In this document: piece by piece, positions 322 through 53,575 of the stretch
How the letters are laid out: the number at the start of each line of letters is the position of its first letter
How positions within the stretch are numbered: the first letter of the stretch is position 1
Assembly: GCA_015039465.1 (NCBI GenBank)
Contig: MU130030.1
Coordinates: 159,950 to 223,949, forward strand
DNA from: Phlegmacium glaucopus
Taxonomy: Eukaryota > Basidiomycota > Agaricomycetes > Agaricales > Cortinariaceae
Direction: 5' to 3'
Length of the DNA: 64,000 bases
Program-made: the position numbers and the translations under genes
Notes under the pieces: model-generated
Told to the model about the DNA's origin: nothing
The model's input: the letters and a program-made list of their open reading frames with translations, nothing else
Databases searched by the model: none

Positions 322-1328
322 CATCAGGAAAAATGACTTCTGCCTTAGGCTGTCCTGAAATGTCCTGGGGTGCCCCAGGCAGCTCAGGGCACTCAGGTCA
401 AGAGGGTCGCCCTGGGGTGCAAGTTACCTATGTATGAAAAGTCTTAGGCTGTCCTGGGGCAACCTGAGGCAACCTGAGGGCAACCTGAGGCAACCTGAGA
501 GCAACCTGAGGCAACCTGAGAGCGTCCTGAGGCAACCTGAGAGTGTTCTGAGGCAACCTGAGAGCATCCTGAGGCAGCCTTAGTCCCTTTGGATCTGATG
601 CTAGAAAACATATATAAACCAGATATTTGAGTGGCCTCACACAACAGAATAATAATAATAATAATAAAATTATATTCAATTATTCTAAACATCATATATA
701 CTAGTAATAAAATAATAATAAAATAGTGATACATAAATATACTAGTATAATACTGGGGAAGTAGGAAATAAGAAAACAAAATTGTGGGTGGTTTATATAT
801 CTTTTGGATGGCGCACAGACCATTGGTCACATGATCACAGATAAGCATGATTTCAAGCATATGGTGCTGGGTCAGGGTAGATTACATAAATTCCAAAAAA
901 GGAAATTTTTTTAAAGATGGTAGAGAATTGTTTTAGGACCCTGAATATGTTTAAATTATATTAATAGCAGCTCTCCTTATTGAGAAAACTTCAAAATACT
1001 TTCCTGGACACGGTGGTTAAAGATTTTCTAGCAAAATTCATAAATTCTAAGGGACTCCCAGGGCCTCCTGATGTGATTTAATCCAGATGGTCAATGCACC
1101 AGGATACACTAAAGGTGTCCTGAGAAAATGGGTGACACTCAAAGCTTTATCTATGCTGTCCTAGGTTGTCCTGAGGTGTCCTTGGATAAGTGTGTAACAC
1201 TCAACTTTTACCTGTGCTGCTCTAGGATGTCCTGGGGTGTCCTGGGGTGTCCTGGGATGTCCTGAGTAGTGATGTGATACTAACAAAATACCCAAGGCTA
1301 CCTAGGGCCAAAATCATTTTTCCTGATG
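322..1328. mobile_element. Short inverted-repeat element A, copy 1
   Basis: The element begins CATCAGGAAAAATGA and ends with the reverse complement TCATTTTTCCTGATG. A second copy in opposite orientation lies at 11335-12276. Inside are two tandem blocks: GCAACCTGAG-type units around 440-570 and GGGGTGTCCTG-type units around 1205-1265. Flanking dinucleotides are CA on both sides (AA on both sides of copy 2), suggesting a very short target duplication. No coding capacity is visible, so it is non-autonomous and its superfamily is undetermined. Confidence 0.8.
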
Positions 1329-1428
1329 CAAAGACCTTGAGAAAGGTCATGTGACATAATTCCCACACTGCATCAGTGATCTATGAACTGCACCATCATT
1401 GCTTGTATATATATAAAAACTAATGGTT

Positions 1429-5307: not shown

Positions 5308-5579
5308 GCAGGGAGTTGGAGCAGGTAGGTAAGCTACATTGTTATGTGTAACATGGTGTAGCGAAGACATACATTGTATTGACTAAGTTGGGCCCGCTGG
5401 AGGCCAGTGAAGCACCTAAATATAGGATACATACATTGTATTGACTAACTTGAGGCCAGTGGGCCTGCTGGAGGGCCTATAATATATTAATATTAGCAGG
5501 CAGCTGCCTGATGTGCACCTGCAGCCCATATTCAGCTACAAATGTACCCTGCAGCAACCAAAAACTGCCTAAATGGGTA

Positions 5580-6130
5580 GATAAATATATAACTAATGCA
5601 ATTCTCAATGGTTTTGCATCAAAAAAAATTGCCTTGTACTCATAGAATTTAGGGCTACACAGGATGTAAAGAATGGCCATGGTTGAGCCATGAAGGCCAT
5701 GGGTAAAATTAAAAAAATTTGGCCTCAAGAGTAAACCAATAGCCAATTAACCCAAATGTTAATCATTTTTCATGAGGAAAAGTGCGTTGGACTTGTAGGA
5801 GTTAAGGATACAAAGGATGTAAACGACGGCCACGGTTGAGCAATGAAGGCCGCGGGTAAAATTCAAATTTTTCGGCCTAAAAGAGAGAATTAATAGCTAA
5901 TTACCCCAAATGTTAACCATTTCTCATGAGGAAAAGTGCATCAGACTTGTAGGATTTAAGGCTACACAATATATAACAATGGCCGCAGTTGAGCAAAGAA
6001 GGCCATGGGTAAATTAGAAAATTTTGGCCTAAAAGATGGAATTAATATCTAATTAATGCAATTTTCAATGGTTTTCATCAATAAAATTGAATCAGACTCA
6101 TAGGATTTATGGCTACACAGGATGTAAACA
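5580..6130 (+). repeat. ~155-bp tandem repeat, about 3.5 units
   Basis: Units recur with matching landmarks: GGCCATGGTTGAGC near 5672, GGCCACGGTTGAGC near 5828 and GGCCGCAGTTGAGC near 5981. Each is followed by a GGCCTAAAAGA-type segment and a CTCATGAGGAAAAGTGC segment. Divergence is noticeable, so the array is old. Just upstream (5366-5480) is a separate partial duplication around TACATTGTATTGACTAA. Confidence 0.75.
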
Positions 6131-6344
6131 ATGGCTGCTATCGCGCACCAATACTGGTGGGTAGTTGTGACAGTGGTGGGCGGCGAGTGATTGTGATGGA
6201 CATCAAGGGCTAGAGTTGGTGGTGGGAAAGGGTGGGAAGTGATGGGGGAGGGTGGGAAGCGATGGGTGGAAAGCGCCCATATTTGGGTATGCGCATGGGC
6301 CATGTGTCAGCAACAGAATATCGGAATTACTTTTTCTACAAATG

Positions 6345-11173: not shown

Positions 11174-12695
11174 TGTTACGTTCCATTATACATTACTCCG
11201 GTCCAGCTCTGTCAGAGTTGTTTCCGGTAGTCCATACTCCATTCAGTACTTTCCCTTGTCTCCAGATCCACTCCTCCTACATCCAACTCCAAGACTTCTC
11301 TGTATCATTCCGGGTCTTCCAACAATACTCCAAACATCAGGAAAAATGATTTTGGCCCTAGGTAGCCTTGGGTAATTTGTTAGTATCACATCACTACTCA
11401 GGACATCCCAGGACACCCCAGGACACCCCAGGACATCCTAGAGCAGCACAGGTAAAATTTGAGTGTTACACACTTATCCAAGGACACCTCAGGACAACCT
11501 AGGACAGCATAGATAAAGTTTTGAGTGTCACCCATTTTCTCAGGACACCTTTAGTGTATCCTGGTGCATTGACCATCTGGATTAAATCACATCAGGAGGC
11601 CCTGGGAGTCCCTTAGAATTTATGAATTTTGCTAGAAAATCTTTAACCGCTGCGTCCAGGAAAGTATTTTGCAGTTTTCTCAATAAGGAGAGCTGCTATC
11701 AATATAATTTAAACATATTCAGGGTCCTAAAACAATTCTCTACCATCTTTAAAAAATTTCCTTTTTTGGAATTTATGTAATGTACCCTGACCCAGCACCA
11801 TATGCTTGAAATCATGCTTATCTGTGATCATGTGACCAATGGTCTGTGCGCCATCCAAAAGATATATAAACCACCCACAATTTTGTTTTCTTATTTCCTA
11901 CTTCCCCAGTATTATACTAGTATATTTATGTATCACTATTTTATTATTATTTTATTACTAGTATATATGATGTTTAGAATAATTGAATATAATTTTATTA
12001 TTATTATTATTATTCTGTTGTGTGAGACCACTCAAATATCTGGTTTATATATGTTTTCTAGCATCAGATCCAAAGGGACTAAGGCTGCCTCAGGACACTC
12101 TCAGGTTGCCTCAGGATGCTCTCAGGTTGCCTCAGGTTGCCCCAGGACAGCCTAAGACTTTTCATACATAGGTAACTTGCACCCCAGGGCGACCTCTTGA
12201 CCTGAGTGCCCTGAGCTGCCTGGGGCACCCCAGGACATTTCAGGACAGCCTAGGGCAGAAGTTGTTTTTCCTGATGAACCCAATACCACATCTTCGCCAT
12301 AACCACTATTTCTTTGTCATCACCTTGCCCACTATCAGTCAGCACACCCGCTATGGATTATTCACCCAAGAATGGAGGACTTTCCAGGAGCAGAACGCAG
12401 CACTTATATTTATCTTTTATATTTTGGTTGCTATTCCTTTGTTTATTTAAGTACTCAAACTTGTATGTTTTCCTCAGTTCAAATATCAACTTAGTTTCCT
12501 CCTCTTGTTCATCCTCTAAATCACGGAGGTCTTCCATCTTATTCCTTTCTCTTCCGGTTCCAAAATCAGGACACTATAGGAGCTGGGTGGCACAGCACAT
12601 ACACTGAGGCCAAAGTCCTTTCCATTATTTGTTCCGGTTCTGTTCTGTCCATTCCGGAGTAACTCCGATGTGACTCCTTTGTTTTAAACTTAACA
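11174..12695 (-). mobile_element. G1 solo LTR (inverted), itself split by element A
   Basis: On the plus strand it runs TGTTACGTTCC to TAAACTTAACA with the 5-bp target duplication AATAC at 11169-11173 and 12696-12700. It is interrupted by element A copy 2 (11335-12276); without that the LTR is about 575 bp. Confidence 0.92.
11335..12276. mobile_element. Short inverted-repeat element A, copy 2
   Basis: This is a near full-length copy of element A in the opposite orientation to copy 1, from CATCAGGAAAAATGA to TTTTTCCTGATG. Tandem CAGGACACCCC units are at about 11398-11440 and CTCAGGTTGC units at about 12090-12145. Comparison with uninterrupted G1 LTRs (CCAAACCC) shows the insertion point and only a two-base AA overlap. 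Confidence 0.85.
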
Positions 12696-18014: not shown

Positions 18015-18227
18015 GAGGTCTTTACACTAAGCCACTAATTCCGATTGGACTCAAATTTGGCTGGAGCACTAGCCATTTTCAAATTTTGAGTCCGAGCCCA
18101 GTCCGAGTTCAGTCCGAGTAAATTGCTTGGACTACTTGGAATCTGATTGGACTTACTCAGACTTAGTCCAAGTAAATTGCTTAGACTACTTGTTTGTACC
18201 CATGTTTGTATCCACGTTTATCCTCTT

Positions 18228-18886
18228 CCCACACAGACCATTGGTCACATGATCCCAGATAAGCATGATTTCAAGCATATGGTGGGTCAGAGTAGATTAC
18301 ATAAGATTCCAAAAAAGGAAATTTTTTAAAGATGGTAGAGAATTGTTTTAGGACCCTGAATATGTTTAAATTCTATTAATAGCAGCTCTCCTTATTGAGA
18401 AAATTGCAAAATACTTTCCTGGATGCAGCAGTTAAACATTCTATATGAAAATTTGAGGTCTTTGCTGTGATCCACCAGATCTGATCAGATCTGAGCAGAT
18501 TTGGCAGGCATTCTGAGCAGATCTGAGCAGAATGGAAACTATATACCTCCCTAACCTTAATAAAACCCTAACCAAACCTTAACCCAAACCTTAACCAAAC
18601 CTTAACCCAAACCTTAACCAAACCTTAACCCAAACCTTAACCAAACCTTAACCAAACCTTAACCAAACCTTAACCAAACCTTAACAGAAGTAGCTAGTAG
18701 GTCTCTATTTTCTCAGATCCACTTGGATCCACTCAGATATAACAATTCTGATCAGATCTGATCAGATCTGGTGGGGGACAGAAAAGTACTGGAAAATTCA
18801 TAAATTCTAAATCAATTCTAAGGGACTCCCAGGGCCTCCTGATGTGATTTAATCCAAATGGCCAATGCACCAGGATGCACTAAAGG
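18228..18886. mobile_element. Element A, copy 3 (partial, split)
   Basis: The sequence from CACAGACCATTGG through CATATGGTG, then a stretch interrupted by hAT-1 (18455-18791), then CTAAGGGACTCCCAGGGCC to ACTAAAGG, follows copy 1 in order. The CATCAGG termini are missing here because hAT termini cut it on both sides. Confidence 0.75.
18455..18791. mobile_element. Small hAT-1 element with telomere-like core
   Basis: It begins GAGGTCTTTGCTGTG and ends ACAGAAAAGTACTG, flanked by GAAAATTT (18447-18454) and GAAAATTC (18792-18799). The core, about 18553-18690, is an array of CCTTAACCAAA and CCTTAACCCAAA units. GATCTGATCAG units lie near both ends. Confidence 0.85.
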
Positions 18887-19193
18887 GAGGTCTTTACTCT
18901 CCCCCACACATTCCAAGCGGGTCCGAGCGGGTCCGAGCGAACTCCGAGCAGAATCTGAGCAGAATCCAACCATATTCCAACCAATTTTACATCAAATTCA
19001 TTATAACCACCTAGCATCAATATACTGCCCTAACCTCTTAAATAAACCTTAATCCTAACCCTAAATAGACTCTAACCAAACCTTAACCTAACCCTAAATG
19101 AGGTCAGAAGTTGGTCGGAATTTGGTTGGATTGCTCAGAATTTGGTTGGAATTTGGTTGGAATTTGGTTGGATTGCTCAGACCCGCTCGGTAT
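18887..19193. mobile_element. hAT-1 right half, cut by element D
   Basis: The terminus GAGGTCTTTACTCTCCCCC opens an array of GGGTCCGAGCGG-like units and CCCTAACC-like units. It follows ACTAAAGG inside element A. The matching left terminus (CAGTACTTTACCCTCCCCC) is found in the string-reversed block beginning at 20460. Element D interrupts it at 19194. Confidence 0.65.
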
Positions 19194-19883
19194 CGCGCAC
19201 CAATACTGATTGGTAGCGTGAGAAGAAAGCTTAAAAGTCGCCATCATGAAAATAAGCGGACTTCAAATTCACTTACCTATTTTGGAAGCAGCCCTGAATC
19301 GTGTTCCTGGTCAACAAAATCATTCGTTCAACGATAACATCCCCATCGCTCATCATACTCTCAATGTCTCACACTATGCTCTCCATCGTTTTCACTATTG
19401 ACATGCTCCTAAGCATATACCATCCGTTCGTTCCTTGGCTAGTGATCCAGCAAAGCGATCAATCTACTATTCGCATCGGTCATCGGCTTGCGTTTGATCG
19501 TATCTTTGGTCCATCATTTCAAGAACGGCCCCTTTATGGATGCATCAACTACATCTCCCATTATGTACAAGGCTTTGTCATTGTTGTTGTGGCTATGGAC
19601 CCACAAGTCTTTGCTTCAGCTATATATCTTGCCATACCTCGCTCCTGGATCTCACTCAGTCCCCTATCCTCACTCATCTACCTCTTATCTTATCATTCAC
19701 TGCCAAAACCATCATTCACGCGGTACCTGAAGCCTTCCCACCCTCTTTATGACAATTTAGGAAGTCCAGGAGGATCACGACTAAGCAGGAATTGCAGATG
19801 AATCAGCAGCAGAGGATTATTCTCGCAGTGTGTCAAGTGTTATCAAGGCTGCGCGACATGGGACCATGGGCAAGTAGTGTTTT
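19194..19883 (-). mobile_element. Element D, copy 1 (first part)
   Basis: It begins TATCGCGCACCAATACTG and is about 90 percent similar by eye to the reverse complement of 29207-29898. Both copies carry a similar open frame of about 165-210 codons (for example MSHTMLSI and VIVVVAMDPQVF) with no recognised domain. The intact continuation after GTAGTGTTTT would be CTCGGGAACAAGG. In the record this is replaced by a block that supplies exactly that sequence only when reversed. Confidence 0.7.
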
Positions 19884-21152
19884 GGGTAGGAAAGGAGAAG
19901 CCTAGGGGACGATCCACTCAGTGAACATCTATAGGGAAACTTTATGATAATTGAAACCTAGGGGACAATCGAACTGATTCAGTCCCAGCGTCAACGGGAT
20001 TGTCCAGCGGTTGGTTCTCCTACTTGGATGGAACTCCCTTCGTGAACCGTCAGCACTTTTTCTTGTTACCTACCTACGTTATCTTCGTCTTGAATGGGTC
20101 TAGCTTTTCAATGTGTGGACCCTGGAATAGTTGTGTGGTATACCGTGATTACACTATGGTACGACTATGTAAAAAGCGACATTTACACTACGGCTACCCT
20201 TATAACGAGCTATATTCCGGTCTAATCAACGTTTTCCCATATCTGTCCTCAAACCACAACTAATGTGACTTTGAAAGCGAGGGTGTCAGGCGGGACATTC
20301 GAATGTGTGGAATAACAGAAAGTCACGAGTCTTTTTACGAAGGTAAGTAGTTTAACTGCAGTTTTTACGGATAACATTACGGATGAATGTTCTCCTACTT
20401 CACTAAGTATACTTAGAGGGGGGAGATATGGTGTTTCAAAGGCTAGATGGATTGTTCAAGTCATGAAATGGGAGGGGGTGTGTAAGGCTATATTTAGTAA
20501 CAAACACAACTATATATTGTGGTTGGTCTCTCGTCACCTGGTCAGGAATCCAGTTCTCTGAGGGACAACAAGCAAATCCCTTCCACATTGGAACTGAACA
20601 TAGTGTGTCTCCATCCCTCGTTCTCATCTCCACTCCTCCTACTCCTACTTACAGAACCTTCTACCTACTCCATCTTCTACTCCTACTCCTACCCATTCTT
20701 TCTCAGAAGTCATTCTGATATCGCTAACTCCCTATCCCCTATCTAACTGTCATTCCCCGTTCTTTTCGCTTGAATTCCCTCCTTAAGTGACCTTAAGGTG
20801 ACTCTACTACTTTCACCCCCCATTCTTACTTAACTTGACTTGATGGATAGGACCATGTTTTCTCGTCATAAATATGGGATTCCTACTCCGATACATTTTG
20901 TTATTTTTTTTTCTTCATGCGCGACAGTTTCCTTCTTTCTATTTCTCTCCTGTCGACGCTCTTCTTTTCTTGTTACCTTTTCTTCTTCCTTGTTATTTTT
21001 TTAGACATTTCACAGTTTCACGCTCTCTTTTCTTTTCTTCCTTCACATGTATCAGGTTATCGTTTTTATATAGCTGAGGTATCCGCACACCAGTACAGTT
21101 TTTACACTTTCCAGGACTCAGTTGTGAACTTTCCGCGTCGGAACAAGGGCTC
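19884..21152. other. String-reversed block, left of the gap
   Basis: As written, this stretch matches nothing. Complemented base by base without reversing, it gives in order: the last ~119 bases of the G2 Gypsy LTR ending GTTGCCCTAACA (raw 20002), Copia RT from about 20003 to 20459 (EQWMDAIEAELTQIEKLHTW, then YKARLVAKGYRQEFGVDYTE), a hAT-1 left terminus at 20460, and element D sequence ending CTTGTTCCCGAG. Reversing the raw block places CTCGGGAACAAGG directly after GTAGTGTTTT, the exact sequence of element D copy 2. Any direct annotation of the raw letters here would be wrong. Confidence 0.93.
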
Positions 21153-21653
21153 NNNNNNNNNNNNNNNNNNNNNNNNNNNNNNNNNNNNNNNNNNNNNNNN
21201 NNNNNNNNNNNNNNNNNNNNNNNNNNNNNNNNNNNNNNNNNNNNNNNNNNNNNNNNNNNNNNNNNNNNNNNNNNNNNNNNNNNNNNNNNNNNNNNNNNNN
21301 NNNNNNNNNNNNNNNNNNNNNNNNNNNNNNNNNNNNNNNNNNNNNNNNNNNNNNNNNNNNNNNNNNNNNNNNNNNNNNNNNNNNNNNNNNNNNNNNNNNN
21401 NNNNNNNNNNNNNNNNNNNNNNNNNNNNNNNNNNNNNNNNNNNNNNNNNNNNNNNNNNNNNNNNNNNNNNNNNNNNNNNNNNNNNNNNNNNNNNNNNNNN
21501 NNNNNNNNNNNNNNNNNNNNNNNNNNNNNNNNNNNNNNNNNNNNNNNNNNNNNNNNNNNNNNNNNNNNNNNNNNNNNNNNNNNNNNNNNNNNNNNNNNNN
21601 NNNNNNNNNNNNNNNNNNNNNNNNNNNNNNNNNNNNNNNNNNNNNNNNNNNNN
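21153..21653. other. Assembly gap (run of N)
   Basis: About 500 unknown bases. Reading frames through it are artefacts. After correcting the neighbours, the left contig ends inside a G2 LTR and the right contig begins inside element A. Both are repeats, which explains the break. Confidence 0.99.
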
Positions 21654-22992
21654 GTTTGGAATTGGTTTGGAATTGTCTTCATCGATCATCCAGAGATAAA
21701 AGAGTCTAGGTGAACCTAGGTGAGTCTTAGACTCGTCTAGACTCGTCTAGACCAGCCTATATTGTTAAGACTAGTCTAGACTAGTCTAGACCACCCCCTG
21801 TCTTTTCATGACCTTCAAGTATTTAAGATTTATTTAAGATTCCCTGAGGGTCCCGGAGGACTACACTAAATTAGGTCTACCAGTTACGTGGTCCTACGTG
21901 ATTTCCACAGTTTTAGTAAAAAGGACTACGTCAGGCTCAAGTCAGGCTCGACTCAGGCTCGACTCAGGTTCAGGTTCATCATTTTTTAATGAACCTGAGC
22001 CTGAGTTGAGCCTGAGTCGAGCCTGAGTCGAGCCTGAGTCGAGCCTGACTTGAGTCTGACTTGAGCCTGAAAACTACAAAAATGAGTCTAAGGTTAGTCT
22101 AATGAGCCTCAGGTTAGCCTGACCACCCACTCACATTTCAGAACCGGCATACCTCTTTCTAACACAATTAAGTACGGTTGTTCCCAAGATACATACTTTA
22201 CTTGGAAGAATGAGTTAATGTTTGTTCGGTTATGTAACTACCGGTTTCATACACTCTTGTAGACTACTTTTACTGACTCTAGTTTCTTTCTGACCGGTTT
22301 TACTTGACGGTCTAAAGACTACTCAGAAAGCACCGTATATAGGTTTGGAGTGATAGGGAACGTGGGTCAAAGGTTAGGGATTAGTGTTACGATTCGTGGT
22401 GACGTGTACTTAGACCTTTCTTCGAAAACTCATACTTGGAATATACCGTGGAGTTACTTCTCCGTTTGAATTATGTAGTCCTTTTCCGTAGTCCTTTTTA
22501 CTAAAACCGGGATCCATCGGAACCCATTAAACAATCATAGTGTAGTGATGAGTCCTGTAGGGTCCTGTGGGGTCCTGTGGGGTCCTGTGGAGTCCTGTAG
22601 GATCTCGTCGTGTCCATTTTAAAACTCACAGTGGGTAAAAGAGTCCTGTGGAAATCACATAGGACCACGTAACTGGTAGACCTGGTTTAGTGTAGTCCTC
22701 CGGGACCCTCAGGGAATCTTAAATACTTAAAACGATCTTTTAGAAATTGGCGACGCAGGTTTTTTCATAAAACGTCAAAAGAGTTATTCCTCTCGACGAT
22801 AATTATATTAAATTTGTATAAGTCCCAGGATTTTGTTAAGAGATGGTAGAAATTTTTTAAAGGAAAAAACCTTAAATACATTAGATGGGACTGGGTCGTG
22901 GTATACGAACTTTAGTACGAATAGACACTAGTACACTGGTTACCAGACACGCGGTAGGTTTTCTATATATTTGGTTGGTGTTAAAACAAAAG
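21654..22992. other. String-reversed block, right of the gap
   Basis: Complemented without reversing, it reads: telomere-like AACCTTAACC units and the hAT-1 element of 18690-18791, part of element A, a CAGTCCGAG-unit hAT arm, Copia gag C-terminal half at about 22146-22475 (IVLIHANKGSMYEMNLLTQ, then FVAYIQTSLSLAP), then element A from CATCAGG to TTTTGTTTTC. Reversing it in place joins GGTTAAGGTTTG to AGTTAAGGTTTGG at 22993, a perfect continuation of the repeat array. The right edge is uncertain by one or two bases. Confidence 0.93.
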
Positions 22993-23449
22993 AGTTAAGG
23001 TTTGGTTAAGGTTTGGTTAAGGTTTGAGTTAAGGTTTGGTTAGGGTTTTATTAAGGTTAGGGAGGTATATAGTTTCCATTCTGCTCAGATCTGACCATCT
23101 GAGTAGATCTGCTCAGAATGCCTGCCAAATCTGCTCAGATCTGATCAGATCTGGTGGATCACAGAAAAGACCTTGAATTTTTAACCGCCATGTCCAGGAA
23201 AGTATTTTGCAATTTTCTCAATAAGGAGAGCTGCTATTAATAGAATTTAAACATATTTGGGGTCCTAAAACAATTCTCTACCATCTTTAAAAAATTTCCT
23301 TTTTTGGAATCTTATCTACTCTGACCCACCATATGCTTGAAATCATGCTTATCTGTGATCATGTGACCAATGGTCTGTGTGGGAAGAGGACAAACATGGG
23401 TACAAACATGGGTACAAACAAGTAGTCTAAGCAATTTACTTGGACTAAG
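22993..23449. mobile_element. Right inverted arm: telomere-like units and element A
   Basis: TTAAGGTTTGG units run to about 23065, then CTGATCAGATCTGG hAT-1 sequence to about 23177, then element A to about 23385. Array units with CCAAGTAAATTGC (in reverse) follow to the CTAAG target site at 23445-23449. The order is the reverse complement of 18100-18690. Confidence 0.75.
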
Positions 23450-24175: not shown

Positions 24176-27100
24176 TCAAGAGAGTGGAAGAGGTCCAGGT
24201 TTAGTCGGATAGCTCTGGTGGAAATCAGCAACAAGTTTGGACGCATGTCCTAATTCATTAGCTGGTAACCAGGAAGTCTCTTCGTTGGTACCTTCATAGC
24301 CAGACCACTTGACTAGGTACAGAAGTTTGCATACACGTCGTCTGTTGTCCAATTTAGAGTCCAAAATTTCGGAGACCTCGAATTCCTGCTCTCCGTCAAT
24401 GACGACCGGAGGAGGTGGAGGTTGAGTACGATTTGGAATAGTGTTTGGAATGGAGGGCTCTAGCATGGAAACATGGAAGACGGGATGGATGGCACGCATA
24501 TTGTCGGGAAGACGAAGGGTCCAGGACAAAGGACCTGCCTGAGCAATAATCTCATATGGACCAAGATACTTCTCAGAGAGTTTCTTTGAAGGTCTGGTCG
24601 TACAGAAGAATTGTGCTCTGACAAAGGCTCAATCTCCAACCTTGAAGTCCGGGGGAGGAATCCAACGCTTGTCCGCGGAACATTGGTATTGTTCCTGGGA
24701 AGTGAGGATAGCTTTTCGGAGTTCTTCGTGGAGTTCGTTAAGGTCCGTAACGTACTTGTGAGCATGGGAGGAGACGAGGTTGTACTCCGGATGGATAGTG
24801 ATAGCTGGATCATAGCCTTTGTTGGCAAAGAACGGAGATACACCGGTAGTGGCACTTGGAGTATTGTTGTAGGAGAATTCCGCTAATGGGAGAAGTGAAC
24901 TCCAGTTGTCTTGCTGATAATTGCAGTAGATGCAGATGTATTGTTCCAAGGTCTGGTTGACGTGTTCCGTTTGTCGGTCACATTCCAGGTGGTATCCAGA
25001 GGTGAAGTGCAGCTTCATGTCGAGGGCTTTTCCGAGGGATCTGAAGAAGTGAGATACAAACTCGGAACCGTGATTAGAAGTTACATGGGACGGAACACTG
25101 TGCTTGGAAAACACGTGGATGACAAATAGTTCAGCAAGTTGAGCAGAGGTGATGGTGTTGTATGTGGGGATGAAAATGGATTGTTTTGTGAACCGGTCTA
25201 CTACGACTAAGACCGCAGTGAAACCTTCGGAGTCCGGAAGGTATTCAATGAAATCCATGGAGATGGAGTCCCAAGGACAGGATAGAACAGGCAGTTGTCG
25301 GAGTAAGCCGTAAGATTTATGACATTTGGCTTTGGACCGAGAACAGGTGGTGCAAGTCCTACAATAGTCAGTGACAAAAACACGAACACTGGGCCAAGTA
25401 TATTCACGACGGATAACCACAAGAGTTCTATTGACACCAAAATGTCCGGAGACAGGTGTTAGGGCAACTGCAACGCTGACTTAGTCAAGCTAGCAGGGGA
25501 TCCAAAGTTAATAATATTTCAGAAAAGATATCTACAAGTGACTTACCTAGCAGGGGATCCAAAGAGGAAAGGATGGGGATCCCTGCTAGGCTGGGGGTGT
25601 TTAAGTACTAATATGGACATAACGGAGATATAAAATAAATAAAGGAATGATACGATAATAATTAATTAATTAAATAAGAAGTGGTGCGATATGAAAAATA
25701 GAAATAAAAGACGGAGTGAATCGGAGGACCGGAGTCGGAGCGGAACTACGGGATTCCGGAGTCAACCGGTGACGGAAGCGGAGTTGGACGGAAGGTCGGA
25801 GGTCGTCGGAAAGGTGGGGTGTATGATTCTAGAGTTGAGGTTTGGGTTAAAGTCGGGTGTCCCCTAACAACAGGATGGTCATGATAATAACAAAGGACAC
25901 GGAGACGAAGATCTCCGGAATCTGGAACATAGATCCATTGATCAATCCGGATGAATCTGGAAGAGTCCTTAGACCATCTAGCATACTTCGGATTGTCTAG
26001 ATCCAATAAGTAGGACTGTGCAAGGGGATCCGTAGAAAGAGCAGAAAGGATCCCCTTGTTGAGCTCTTTGACATCCATGGTAAAGATACCACGGAGTATG
26101 GTAGGAAGTAATGAAGTAGCTCGGAGTGAAGCGGAAAGTTGTTCGGAAGAAAAGATAGGTTTAAAATTGTGTGGATTGACTTCACCGTAATCTTTCCCTC
26201 CCTCCTTGAGATAGAGGTCAGGACGACAAGTCAGCATGTCCGGCTTTGTTCTGAGATGGCCTGGGCAAAATCTGATAACCATGTTGAATGCGGAAAGGTA
26301 CTCGGACCACCGGGCTTGACGCTGGGATAAGATTTTGGTGGTCGCAAAGTACTCTAGATTTTTATGGTCAGTAACCACATCAATTGGGAAACTAGCACCT
26401 TCAAGGTAGTGACGCCAAGCTTTGAAAGCTTTGAAAATGGCAAGGAGTTCCTTATCGTGAACGTTGTAATTCAATTCTGCACCGGAAAAGGTACGAGAAC
26501 GATATGTGATGGGATGGATTTCTCCATCGGAATCACGGATGGAAAGAATAGCTGCTAAAGCGTAGTTGGATGCGTCAGTTTCCACAATGATAGGACAGTC
26601 TGGCTTCCAGTGTGTTAACACCGGAGCGGAAATAAAAGCCTCCTTGAGAGTCTTAAAAGCAAGGTGACAACTGTCATCAAAAACCCACGGAATATTTTTC
26701 CGGGTAAGACGAGTCAACAGAACCACAATATCAGAGTAGTTGTGGATGAAACACCTGTAAAAATTAGCAAAACCAAGGAAGGATTGGACATCTTTGACTT
26801 TCCGAGGTTCTGGCCAGTCTTGAATGACTTGGACTTTTGCCGGATCCATAGAAAGGCCATCAGGACCAATCATGTGACCCAGGTACTCGACGGAATTGGA
26901 GTGGAAAACACATTTCTTACCATTAGCGAAGAGATTATTATCTTGGAGCCATTGGAGGACTTCGGAGACATGTTTGATGTGATCTTTTTTGTTGATGGAG
27001 AAAATGAGGATGTCGTCCAGATAGATGATTATGAACACATCTAAAAGGTCAGCAAAAATAGGTTAAGGAAGCGTTGAAAACCGCCAGGGGCATTGGTAAG

Positions 27101-27590
27101 TCCGAATGGCATGACAAGCCATTTGAAGGATCCATAGCGGGTACGAAAAGCAGTCTTCCATTCATCTCCCGCAGCAATCCAGACGAGATGGTGGGCATGC
27201 TTTAAATCGATTTTAGTGAATATTCCGGATTTGCGAGGAGCATCAAGTAAGTCGGAAACAAGGGGTAAGGGATACTTGTCTTTCCGAGTGATGGCATTGA
27301 GTTTTTGGAAGTCGATGCAAAGCCAGAGTGACCCGTCCTTCTTCTTGATAAACAGGACAGGTGCTCCAAAAGGAGACTTAGAGGGGCGGATGAAACCCAT
27401 GTTTAGGTGCTTGTCGATGAATTCTCGGAGTGTTCCTAACTCGGATTCGGAAAGGGGATAAATTGGACCCAAAGGGGGCTTAGTGGACTCATCAATTTCA
27501 ATTTTTAGGTCATACTCTCGATGGTCCGCTAGACTGTTAGCCTTGCCTTTGGAAAAGACATCCGAAAATTCATGGTATATTTCCAGAACA
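24176..27590 (-). pseudogene. G1 Gypsy pol: RT, RNase H, integrase, chromodomain
   Basis: Reading on the minus strand: RT begins without gag or protease, with LGPIYPLSESEL and FIRPSKSPFGAPVLFIKKKD. A frameshift falls at about 27040, then YLDDILIF with the catalytic Asp pair, RNase H (VETDASNYALAAIL), and a solo G2 LTR (25457-25869). Integrase follows with a CRTCTTCSRSKAKC zinc motif and MDFIEYLP. The second catalytic Asp position reads TSNHGSEF, so Asp is replaced by Asn. The C-terminal chromodomain (LLYLVKWSGYEGTNEETSW) points to a chromovirus-type Gypsy. It is inactive. Confidence 0.9.
25457..25869 (-). mobile_element. G2 solo LTR in G1 pol
   Basis: The 413-bp LTR reads TGTTAGGGCAACTG to CCCTAACA on the plus strand, with perfect 5-bp target duplication ACAGG (25452-25456, 25870-25874). 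It has the same length as the two LTRs of G2 at 30184-39186. Confidence 0.95.
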
Positions 27591-27591
27591 C

Positions 27592-28161
27592 TGTTACATT
27601 CTGTTATACGTTACTCCAGTCCAGCTCCGTCGGAGCTGTTTCTGGTAGTCTGTACTCCGTACAGTGCCTTCCCTTATATCCTGAACTACTCTTCCTATGT
27701 TCAACTCTGAGACTTTCCCGTGTCATTCTGGTTCCTCCATCTATACTCCAAACCCGTTACCACTTCTTTGCCACTACCACTATTCTTTGTCATCATCCTT
27801 CCCACCATCAGTCAGCATACCCGCCATGGATTATTCACCCAAGAATGCAGGACCTTTCTGGGAGCAGAATGCAGCACTTATATTTATCTTTTATATTTCG
27901 GTTGCTATTCCTTTATTTATTTAAGTACTCGAAACTTGTATGTTTTCCCTCAGTTTGAATATCAACTTTATTTTCTCCTCTTGTTCGTCCTCTAAGTCAC
28001 TGAGGTCTTCCGTCTTATTACTTCTTCTTCCATTCCAAAATCAGGACACCTTAGGAGCTGGGCGGCACAGCACACACGCTGAGGCCAACGTCCTTTCCGC
28101 TTACTGTTCCAGTTCCGTTCCGGAGTAACTCCGACGTGACTTCCTTGTTTTAAACTTAACA
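27592..28161 (-). mobile_element. G1 LTR next to pol
   Basis: A full 570-bp LTR in the same orientation as the adjacent pol, so it acts as its 5' LTR. Pol begins within two bases of its TGTAACA end, which shows that gag, protease and the start of RT have been deleted. Its own flanks (AACAC and CTAAG) do not match, so it is not a solo insertion. Confidence 0.85.
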
Positions 28162-31420: not shown

Positions 31421-31580
31421 TTGTTGTTGTTGTTGTCAGTGGTGGTGGTGGTGGTCGTCCTCAGTGGTGGTGGTGGTGGTCGTCAACAGTGGCAGTGGTG
31501 GTGGTGGTGGTTGTAGCTGTCATTGTCATTGTCATTGTCATTGTGGCAGTGGCTGTTGTTGTTGCTGTTGCTGTTGTTGC

Positions 31581-31623
<43 letters not shown>

Positions 31624-31624
31624 G
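31421..31624 (+). repeat. GTT/GGT microsatellite
   Basis: A compound tract: GTTGTT, GGTGGTGGT, CATTGT and again GTTGTT units. Reading frames here give only runs of one or two residues and are not genes. Confidence 0.95.
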
Positions 31625-31625
31625 A

Positions 31626-32290
31626 TGGCTCAAGGGTCTTTAGCACTGCACCTTATTTCCAGGGGTAATTAGTGTTTGAAGGTCCGGTTATGAGACCGGA
31701 AAAAGACCGTAACCAGACCAGACTGGACCAGAAAAAGACCAGACCAGTGGTCCGGTCTTTTGATTTTTGAGAATCAAAGACCAGAAAAAGACTGGTCTCG
31801 ATTAACCGGTCTTTTGAGGTTCAGACCGGTTTGAACCGGCAAACAGGTAGCCATAACTTACCCCTTTCCAACGAGCCCAAGATCATAAAAATCCAATAAA
31901 AACTGGTTGAGAAATAAATAGATCTGTAAAATAGTCTAAAATATTTGCTAAAATACTAGTATTACTGTAGAAAATACAAATCCTAACGGAATTCAACGTT
32001 CTTGGGCTCGTTCGGAAGCTATTATTAAACTTAACAACAATTTCAGATACAAAAATATATATTTGTCAGCAGAAGACCAGTCCTAGGACCGAAAAAAACC
32101 GATGTAAACTGGTCCTAAGTGGTTCAGTCCGGTCTTTTTCGGTCCTAGGACTGAGGTGGACCGGTTACAGTCTCAGTTAAAGGTCCCAAGGGTCAAAAAG
32201 CCGGACTGGACTGGACTTTTAAACACTAGGGGTAATGTGTTCAATTCCCAGCATGACACATGTATATTAAAGCATTATATTATTTTGTAT
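31626..32290 (+). mobile_element. tRNA-derived SINE, split by element B3
   Basis: An A box (TGGCTCAAGGG, 31626-31636) is followed, after removal of element B3, by a B box (TGTTCAATTCCC, 32238-32249) at tRNA-like spacing, then ATATTAAAGC and an AT-rich tail. The GTT microsatellite lies immediately 5'. Confidence 0.6.
31670..32228. mobile_element. hAT-like element B, copy 3
   Basis: Termini TAGTGTTTGAAGGTCC and GGACTTTTAAACACTA, perfect 8-bp target duplication GGGGTAAT (31662-31669, 32229-32236). The interior has GACCGGAAAAAGACC units in place of the AACCGGTTA units of copy B1. It is non-autonomous. Confidence 0.93.
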
Positions 32291-51086: not shown

Positions 51087-53575
51087 ATGCAATTGAAGCT
51101 GGTGTATCGTTTTCTCCGTAAAATATCAGATTGGACGGTAGATGGGTTCTATTCGGAAGTCTATTTGGAGGGTCAAGAAAATGTGCCCAAAGAAGGCCCT
51201 CTCATCATGTACGTCAATGAGCTGGCCCACCTTTGCTTGGTTCCTCTCTTCCATTGCGGTGGCAGGGAGTCTTCGTCACCGTGCCACACCTAATGCATCT
51301 CCTTTCTTCTCCCTCGCTGGGATGCTTGTGGACTAAGTAAAAGACATCATGCTAATACCATCCCGGGACAGCGCATCAACACATCATAATGAAATCATCG
51401 ACATTGCTACGTTAGGTCAGAAATCCTCAACCCTTACTGTCTTACAAAAGAACAATTGAATAATTTTATAACAGCCGCAACGCTTCCTCACAGACGGCAC
51501 CTCTCATTCTGGGCCAAATCAACCTTGTTCGCGAACCCTATCGCTGGAGCCATCCTTTCGTCGTCTGGGGCCATTCCTGTCAGACGGAATCCCAACAATG
51601 GAGCTGCTCCTCCTCATCCTGCTGTACCTTCACCTTCCGAGGCCCCTCATAGTGATCCTTCTTCCCCGAAGAACGCTACCACGAAGGCAAATGTCAGCCC
51701 AGAAGTCTCATTCCGTTCAGCCTTATTCGGGGACACTTCTAAAGCACTCGCTTCGAACCAAGTTGTGGGTGTGTTTCCTGAAGGAACTAGTTATACTCAG
51801 TCAAGCATTGTGCAAATCATGTCTGGAGCGGGGTGGGCTGCGGTGGAGTACGCACGATATGTTCATGAGCATAACAACCTGTGGAGTCAGAATGGACATG
51901 GTGAAGGGAAGGAAACAAATACTGGGTTGAAGATCATGCCCGTTGCGGTGGTGTATACTGATAAGTCTCAGTATCAGAGCCGGGTGAGTAGTTTATCTAT
52001 ATTAAATATCATATCTTAATATTTGCTGCTACTTTCTCCCTATAGATCTGTGTCAGGTATGGTTGAATATTTTCACAGAAAAAGTGGTTCATCCGAACAA
52101 AATATTGGTCTGAAGATACGGAGAACCTATCGTAATTGACTCTTACGCAACGGAATTGTTTGAAGGCGATCCTGATGCAGCTTCAAAATTGGTCGTAAAG
52201 CAAATAATGACGAAAGTTGAAAAACAACTGAGGAATATGACGATTAATGCTCCTGATTGGTAATTTTTTTTGAAAGGAGATTCTTTTAGCTGCCTCTGAG
52301 CCGCTTTTTGGAATCAGGGACACACTTTGCGCTGCGACAATAGCGAGAGCCATCCTATGGGGCGATGATCAGAATGTGCCTCTAAAGCATTGGGTGGAAA
52401 TTTCACAAAGGTTTCATTTTTCGGACTCCTATTATTTTCCTGCCTAATGACTTTCTCCCTAAATTCTCTAGACTCGTTAAAATGTTCACTCCACCACTGG
52501 AGGAAGCCTCGAGTATCCAATACGATTCCATTGCGCATTTGAAAGCAGCTCTCACAAAATACTACGCACTCTTACATTATACGGGTATCAAGCATTCCAT
52601 CCTTACATCCCTTCTCCCTGTTCAGCCATCAACATCAGCCCTTCGGGATAGTTCCCCTTCTCACACTCCCCCACGCAGCTCCCTCTTGGTGCAGCCCACA
52701 CTTTCAATTCTCTCCAGCCTACCTTCATCCCTGATCGGCCTGATTTTGTTCATGTTTCCTTTACTCATTCATCTTCCGGGGTATATCACTGGGCACCTTG
52801 CTGCAAAATTTTTGGCTGTACCCAGAGAAGAAGAATCATATGCTCAATTCAAGGCTGTCGGAGGCGGTCTGGGTATTGGAGCTAACCTTGCGATGATTTT
52901 GGGTATCTTGTGGAAGATGACTAGGTTGGGTCGCTTAGATTCCTTCGCTCCCCCGGGTAGGGATGATGAGGGATGGTTGCCACCGTTGAAGCGTCTGATC
53001 GGGCTATCGGGCGCTGTTTATTGCAGCGTCGTTATACTTCTTAAATGGCACAAACTCTTAGTCAAAGGTGAGATCTGCATCCATCATCTGGCATCAGCAT
53101 CTTACTGATATGTTTCCTGGTATCTATTGTTTCCATCAATGCTACAGAGAATTACAGACAGTGAATACTTTCTTTCGAGTCAGGCTTCATGAAAAAGGCT
53201 GAATTCCTTTTATCTAGTTTACAACGGCTGTTAACCTACCGCAAACTCTTGTTAACGTCTGTCCGTAAGGATAATAGTCTCAGCACAACAGAACTCGCCG
53301 CGTATATCACACCACCGCCACCTGCAGCCAACGTCTTCATCAAGAGAAGAGAAGCTGCCTCATCGGATGCGAACAATGTTGCTCGTGACTCGAATGGTCC
53401 AGATATGGCAGAAAGCTTCCAGCCGCCCAAACTGGTGTCATCTAGGAAACTGATAAGGCATTTGCTGGATGCACGAACAGATGCATGCGCTGCTCTGTCG
53501 ACTCACTTATCAACGACGGACAATAAAACGTTACTTACTTTTGTATTGGACAATGGGGGGAATGTTTCACAGTGA
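51087..53575 (+). CDS. SCT1: Glycerol-3-phosphate/DHAP O-acyltransferase (Gpt2/Sct1 type)
   Basis: Eight exons (51087-51208, 51372-51415, 51475-51983, 52046-52056, 52116-52259, 52318-52410, 52472-53067, 53184-53575) encode 636 residues. The PlsC motifs are HHNEIID (HX4D, split by an intron) and VFPEGTS. Two hydrophobic segments follow (SLIGLILFMFPLLIHLPGYI and the GIGANLAMILGIL region). This enzyme makes lysophosphatidic acid, the first step of glycerolipid synthesis, in the ER membrane. One exon is only 11 bp. Somewhat shorter than yeast Sct1/Gpt2. Which yeast paralogue it matches better was not tested. Confidence 0.88.

What the first reader, a model, noticed from the sequence alone, without database searches (positions are those of the whole stretch)
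19884..22992. Two blocks flanking the assembly gap are written reversed without complementing
The raw letters match nothing, but the base-by-base complement reproduces known sequence in this very window: the G2 LTR end, Copia RT and gag, element A, element D and hAT-1 termini. Reversing each block in place gives seamless joins at both outer edges: GTAGTGTTTT then CTCGGGAACAAGG at 19883 (identical to element D copy 2), and GGTTAAGGTTTG then AGTTAAGG at 22993. DNA strand polarity forbids this in nature, so it is a record or assembly error, affecting about 1.3 kb on each side of the run of N. Annotation and homology searches will miss everything inside.
Basis: seen in the sequence. Interest (0 to 1): 0.93.

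Follow-up and report, generated by a model that had tools for sequence, protein, structure and literature searches.

The report
Backwards-written patches in a mushroom genome
Pieces of DNA that were patched in beside gaps of a mushroom genome assembly are spelled backwards, most likely by gap-filling software, so this is a data error that repeats across the assembly and not biology.

Summary
Window 19884-21152 and 21654-22992, either side of a 501-N gap, match nothing in the rest of the window as written (best 28 bits) but match repeats there when plainly reversed (645 and 756 bits; 100 shuffles of each stay below 35). Reversing each block in place gives alignments across both outer edges; reversing blocks and gap as one unit does not.

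It is not local. The assembly (Phlegmacium/Cortinarius glaucopus by a protein record) holds dozens of such stretches in several transposon families. Many abut N runs or runs of 25 or more A: 23 of 35 distinct reversed pieces, 3 of 30 forward ones. In 18 of 19 testable places in-place reversal restores the interrupted element within 6 bases. Runs of exactly 25 A number 157 on the written strand and 1 on the other; exactly 24 A, 0 and 1. The gap filler PBJelly is reported to inflate short gaps to exactly 25, and JGI hybrid mycorrhizal genomes were patched with it.

Best explanation: gap-filling extensions written reversed in place, 25-N placeholders turned to A. Shown: artefact. Inferred: the program and the faulty step.

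The parts
19884..21152 (.). Block A, written reversed without complementing; restores to the continuation of the repeat 'element D' that runs up to 19883
   Evidence: (element coordinate 696 at 19883, 697 at raw 21152)
21153..21653 (.). Run of 501 N (remaining gap)
21654..22992 (.). Block B, written reversed without complementing; right edge uncertain by several bases, best score at 22993
   Evidence: polarity score -0.042 per base
19188..19883 (+). Correctly written first part of the interrupted copy of element D
   Evidence: 98.4% to the forward copy in L012
28490..29901 (-). Correctly written near-complete copy of element D, matched by reversed block A
11335..11890 (-). Correctly written repeat copy matched by reversed block B
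772..1329 (+). Second correctly written copy matched by reversed block B
18221..18886 (-). Correctly written copy that aligns across the restored right edge

Best explanation
This is a systematic assembly error. After short-read assembly, long reads were used to extend contig ends into gaps. Many of these extension patches (20 measured here, 0.4-2.3 kb) were spliced in at the right place but spelled backwards (reverse without complement, which equals complementing a minus-strand patch without reversing it). If the gap was only shortened, N remained between the patches (the case in this window). If the patches together overfilled the gap, a 25-base placeholder was put between them and was later turned from N into A. 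Shown here: plain reversal, its place beside N runs and 25-A runs, its presence in many places, the one-strand bias of the 25-A runs. Inferred: that long-read gap filling made the patches, that the program was PBJelly, that the fault is a missing reversal or complement step, and that a format without N caused N to become A. The confidence given is for backwards-written gap patches of whatever program; the first rival below, another program or step, lies partly inside it.
For: In-place reversal joins both window edges, the left one exactly. As-written block A (663 bases) gives 46 match rows from 40 scored of 65 candidates, at 40 places by my count; as-written block B (505 bases) gives 41 rows from 33 candidates, 22 of them at least 200 bases long (the window itself is among each; some short B rows may be tandem-repeat matches). 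Reversed Gypsy and Copia pieces give 6 and 14 candidates, their own source included. 23 of 35 distinct reversed element-D pieces of at least 150 bp touch an N run, a 25+ A run or an apparent contig end within 10 bp, against 3 of 30 forward pieces (24 of 38 before removing DNA fetched twice). In 18 of 19 places with a forward piece and a touching reversed piece, in-place reversal restores element coordinates within 6 bases (my reading of the table). Exactly 24, 25, 26 A: 0, 157, 72 on the written strand and 1, 1, 1 on the other. Reversed copies do not form one lineage: 7 changes on the tree, 0% of 200 bootstrap trees with one. RT, RNase H or integrase proteins of the window match reversed stretches of L028 (46%), L036, L043 and L049 (86-94% with the nearer protein). 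PBJelly extends flanks and leaves N if a gap is only reduced (PMC3504050, passages), inflates short gaps to exactly 25 bp (PMC6733440, passage), and was used on JGI hybrid mycorrhizal genomes (PMC7550596, passage).
Against: No raw reads, no pre-patch assembly and no program code were seen. The main text of PMC7550596 does not say in the passages seen that this species was one of the hybrids; a second paper that includes the species names Illumina, PacBio, Velvet, AllPathsLG and Falcon for its own genomes and does not contain the word PBJelly (PMC8480192, passages). Long-read patches would be expected to carry indels, but 20 of 33 reversed segments show none against their nearest forward copy (pooled 1.76 against 0.24 gap events per kb, regions not matched). 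One of 19 places (L048) misses continuity by about 107 bases, and 12 of 35 distinct reversed pieces touch no placeholder within the stretch held. L043 reads as complemented in place, not reversed, so one simple fault does not fit every block. Of three flanks at two gaps met at round coordinates, one is reversed (L028 left), one matches forward (L028 right) and one scores forward by polarity alone (L026 right); L026 also has two 600-base windows of negative polarity near 5401-6300, far from its gap and without homology. So not every gap flank is affected, and the polarity score has false or unexplained negatives.
Confidence: 0.9

Rival explanations
1. Same artefact, other cause: a different gap filler, a hand-made merge, or a later format conversion reversed the patches; PBJelly itself was sound. 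(Partly inside the best explanation, which does not depend on the program's name.)
For: Program code and logs were not seen. A conversion step is needed anyway to turn 25 N into 25 A. L043 is complemented, not reversed, which suggests more than one orientation slip.
Against: The 25-base placeholder and the extend-from-both-sides anatomy are those described for PBJelly.
Confidence: 0.3
2. Real biology: the cell holds DNA copied in mirror order, made by polymerisation of a parallel strand or by systematic nucleotide exchange, then spread as repeats.
For: Reversed copies are many and vary from 68 to 100% identity to the as-written query, as a real repeat family would.
Against: They often abut N runs and one-strand 25-A runs, restore element continuity when reversed in place in 18 of 19 places, and are scattered among forward copies on the tree. 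No polymerase is known to do this (general knowledge).
Confidence: 0.01
3. Chance or low-complexity mirror symmetry.
For: The region is rich in short tandem repeats, which can be partly mirror-symmetric; the window has such mirror matches, for example near 31545-31628.
Against: Shuffles reach 35 bits against 645 and 756; 46 other segments reach at most 100.
Confidence: 0.001
4. The reversal was introduced by the holder of this data set and is not in the public record.
For: Window and held assembly are the only copies seen.
Against: The pattern is tied to gaps and to one-strand 25-A runs on many contigs, which a later handler would hardly create.
Confidence: 0.03

Closest known systems
PBJelly flank extension and overfilled gaps (English et al. 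2012, PMC3504050; gapFinisher paper PMC6733440)
   Different: The passages read mention no reversed patches and no N turned into A.
Overfilled gaps in other PBJelly genomes or benchmarks (PMC4580222, PMC7757076, PMC8848313; passages read)
   Same: Overfilled gaps are reported in each; extended gaps in PMC7757076.
   Different: No plain reversal is reported in the passages read.
Swinger sequences / systematic nucleotide exchange (for example PMC4942731, PMC7027195; search listing and start of abstract only)
   Same: The exchange A-T plus C-G equals complement without reversal (my reasoning), so such blocks would look like swinger DNA.
   Different: Here the blocks sit at gap edges and have a technical explanation.
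Synthetic reversed DNA placed in cells (PMC11006607; search listing and start of abstract only)
   Same: DNA in reversed order.
   Different: That DNA was, by its title and abstract, synthetic and introduced on purpose; here the order exists only in the record.

Membership tests
Reversed-in-place assembly patch | No match in the rest of the window as written, strong match after plain reversal | tested here: met
Reversed-in-place assembly patch | In-place reversal gives seamless outer joins | tested here: met
   18 of 19 places, this window among them
Reversed-in-place assembly patch | Adjacent to a gap or placeholder | tested here: met
   both window blocks; 23 of 35 distinct reversed against 3 of 30 forward pieces
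PBJelly output | 25-base placeholders | tested here: met
   157 exact 25-A runs on the written strand, 1 on the other; 24-A: 0 and 1. They are A, not N, which needs a further step
PBJelly output | Program used on this very assembly | not testable with these tools
PBJelly output | Long-read style indel excess in patches | tested here: inconclusive
   pooled excess but 20 of 33 reversed segments have no indel; regions not matched
Mirror-copied (swinger-like) biological repeat | Reversed copies share one origin and spread | tested here: not met
   7 changes on the tree, 0% of 200 bootstrap trees with one change; only 9 forward rows and 4 of 36 inner branches well supported
Mirror-copied (swinger-like) biological repeat | Blocks independent of assembly gaps | tested here: not met

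The most novel reading that the evidence does not exclude
One release of a widely used gap-filling pipeline wrote flank extensions backwards, so that many published hybrid assemblies carry hundreds of mirror-order blocks, marked in some by one-strand runs of 25 A, that homology searches and repeat annotation cannot see.
Probability: 0.3. Interest if true: 0.55.

Novelty: not a real feature. Interest (0 to 1): 0.35.

Why it matters
A genome assembly carries dozens of matched, and by inference perhaps hundreds of, stretches of about 1 kb that ordinary homology searches will not read correctly; they can hide genes, break transposons, split alignments, inflate 'unique' or 'orphan' sequence, and be mistaken for exotic replication. 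The one-strand run of exactly 25 A is a cheap marker for candidate patches, and an order-4 polarity score can flag them without homology, with some false signals. Reversed sequence is also used as a decoy in search benchmarks (PMC11099658, listing and start of abstract only), so real reversed blocks could spoil such controls.

Tried and rejected
Reversal of block+gap+block as one unit: no crossing alignments. A single self-copying mirror repeat: spoken against by the tree and by gap adjacency. Long-read indel signature: inconclusive. Search for plainly reversed 16S and 23S motifs in genome contigs (84,980 prokaryote species genomes by the tool's description): 0 hits for each of two patterns, with no forward positive control run and the motifs recalled from memory; this says little about PBJelly, since the methods used for those genomes are unknown. 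Papers naming reversed patches or a PBJelly orientation fault: none recognised in the listings of the searches (7 to 12 papers shown each; full text of open-licence PMC papers only). I read passages, not whole texts, of PMC3504050, PMC6733440, PMC8081667, PMC4580222, PMC8848313, PMC7757076, PMC6240028, PMC7550596 and PMC8480192.

Rows dropped: in the indel comparison forward copies up to 85% and reversed copies up to 80% identity to the reference, and one reversed copy without a long enough partner, were left out (17 of 20 and 33 of 35 kept); in the tree 39 of 55 copies, those covering 75% of the common region; in the distance count I entered 40 of 46 rows, 24 of 41, 6 of 9, 10 of 14 and 40 of 41 (second or short pieces left out), and then used only contigs C1-C184, because the 25-A list was cut there.

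Full report
What was checked. The window has one N run, 21153-21653, 501 bases. With the blocks masked from the target, block A (19884-21152) and block B (21654-22992) as written find nothing better than 28.3 bits in the rest of the window, both strands searched. Plainly reversed, A finds 645 bits (727 bp, 79.9%, window 29204-28490) and B finds 756 bits (556 bp, 88.5%, window 11890-11335). 100 dinucleotide shuffles of each stay at or below 34.6 bits, and plain reversal of 46 other 1300-base segments of the window reaches at most 100 bits.

Which operation. Turning each block in its own place gives one 800-bp alignment (93.0%) across 19883/19884 and one 715-bp alignment (81.8%) across 22992/22993. 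By the same criterion the record as written and the reversal of block+gap+block as one unit give no crossing alignment. The left edge is exact: a start at 19884 scores best against both of two forward copies. The right edge lies in a tandem repeat: ends from 22984 to 22995 score within about 1% of each other, the best being 22993. An order-4 Markov polarity score, which needs no homology, is positive in 248 of 252 cross-validated 1-kb windows of sequence taken as normal and is -0.011 for A and -0.042 for B.

Where it is. The window is G000:C25:159950-223949 of a 60.5-Mb assembly in 259 contigs. The assembly holds the same letters at these blocks. An ORF of the window is 100% identical over its length to BYT27DRAFT_7193308 of Phlegmacium glaucopus, on a contig of 297,805 bases, the length of C25. 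This is the mushroom formerly called Cortinarius glaucopus (the synonymy is recalled; the taxonomy entry with strain AT 2004 276 is).

It is found in many places. The as-written block A piece (663 bases) gives 46 match rows from 40 scored of 65 candidates; the as-written block B piece (505 bases) gives 41 rows from 33 candidates, of which 22 rows are at least 200 bases long. The window itself is among each, and some of the short B rows may be tandem-repeat matches. Identity to the query runs from 68 to 100%. Forward copies of the neighbouring half of element D are more common: 783 candidates, 40 scored. Reversed Gypsy sequence taken from L043 has 6 candidates and reversed Copia sequence from L028 has 14, their sources included. 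In L028, L036, L043 and L049 the window's RT, RNase H or integrase proteins match reversed stretches that do not match as written: 46% for L028, 86-94% with the nearer Gypsy proteins for the other three, 34-54% with the more distant ones.

Gaps and placeholders. In the loci in hand, 23 of 35 distinct reversed element-D pieces of at least 150 bp touch an N run, a run of 25 or more A, or in one case an apparent contig end (L035, inferred because the locus was cut short), within 10 bp; 3 of 30 forward pieces do, at A runs. These loci were chosen by reversed or forward hits, so the two fractions compare like with like only roughly, and 12 of the 35 touch no placeholder within the stretch held. Where a forward piece of the same element lies beside the touching reversed piece, turning the block in place restores the element's coordinates: 19 places (L013 and L034 are one place), 18 within 6 bases, L048 off by about 107 (read by eye from the table). 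Examples: this window 696|697, L057 253|254, L046 151|152, L034 138|139. L054, L014 and L043 have both kinds of piece but no touching reversed piece and are not in the 19. Twenty blocks with both ends placed by me measure 381-2,291 bases, median 1,045.

The A runs. Runs of exactly 25 A number 157 on the written strand and 1 on the other; exactly 26 A, 72 and 1; exactly 24 A, 0 and 1. A sharp lower edge at 25 and the use of one strand are not expected of genomic poly-A, which should be about as frequent as poly-T. Of 52 reversed places entered on contigs C1-C184 (22 + 17 + 5 + 8), 15 lie within 1.5 kb of a listed 25- or 26-A site, against 0 of 29 forward element-D places. The other reversed places may lie beside N gaps, which a pattern search cannot see; a good part of those in the loci do.

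Why PBJelly. The PBJelly paper describes extension of flanks into gaps, gaps of 25 or more N, N left in place when a gap is only reduced, and overfilled gaps (PMC3504050, passages). Another paper states that PBJelly inflates short gaps to exactly 25 bp (PMC6733440, passage). A paper that includes this species says that JGI assembled Illumina data with ALLPATHS-LG and patched hybrids with PBJelly (PMC7550596, passage); whether this genome was a hybrid I could not read. A second paper with this species does not contain the word PBJelly (PMC8480192). That N became A through a two-bit format is inference. Reverse in place equals complementing, without reversing, a patch that arrived on the minus strand, so one missing operation suffices for these blocks.

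What does not fit neatly. In L043 the Gypsy polymerase, integrase residues 9-238, the element-D insertion, integrase 236-283 and the following frame are collinear only if the left block is complemented in place and not reversed (my reading of the tables); I saw one such case. Most reversed segments (20 of 33) show no indel against their nearest forward copy. At two gaps met at round coordinates, the left flank of the L028 gap is reversed, its right flank matches forward, and the right flank of the L026 gap scores forward by polarity with no homology; L026 also has negative polarity near 5401-6300, away from its gap, which I cannot explain.

Real mirror DNA? On a tree of 39 copies (9 forward, 30 reversed) the label changes 7 times (shuffled mean 8.3, 78 of 500 shuffles as low) and no bootstrap tree of 200 has one change; well supported branches alone force 2, and only 4 of 36 inner branches are well supported. 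Reversed copies are thus scattered among forward ones, as expected if each was turned on its own. Together with the gap edges and the A runs this leaves no biological mechanism that I would defend.

Verdict. As biology it is not a feature; as a data-quality finding it is useful and, in the searches listed, I recognised no report of it.

Noticed in passing
L043:1-2253 (G000:C237): A block complemented in place and not reversed; it restores a Gypsy polymerase-integrase order that is interrupted by an element-D copy, with integrase residues 236-238 on both sides (a likely target-site duplication).
   Followed up: partly
G000:C158:2920-2971: The only exact 24-A run, on the minus strand (a T run), directly precedes a 26-A run on the plus strand.
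   Followed up: no
G000:C82:25316-25342 and G000:C166:248269-248296: The single minus-strand 25-A and 26-A runs; possibly real poly-A or turned contigs.
   Followed up: no
window 24176-27610, minus strand: Gypsy-like retrotransposon frames; Pfam finds integrase zinc-binding and core domains in 24629-25480. The labels RT and chromo for the neighbouring frames are recalled, not tested.
   Followed up: partly
window 51393-52019, plus strand: Acyltransferase domain (PF01553), probably an ordinary host gene.
   Followed up: no
L014:3476-3843: A reversed segment only 73% like element D, not touching a placeholder, 1.1 kb beyond a 28-A run.
   Followed up: no
L026:5401-6300 (G000:C195): Negative polarity score away from any gap and without homology in the loci held.
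   Followed up: partly
G000:C25:131692-131719: Another probable placeholder (26 A) on the window's own contig, outside the window.
   Followed up: no
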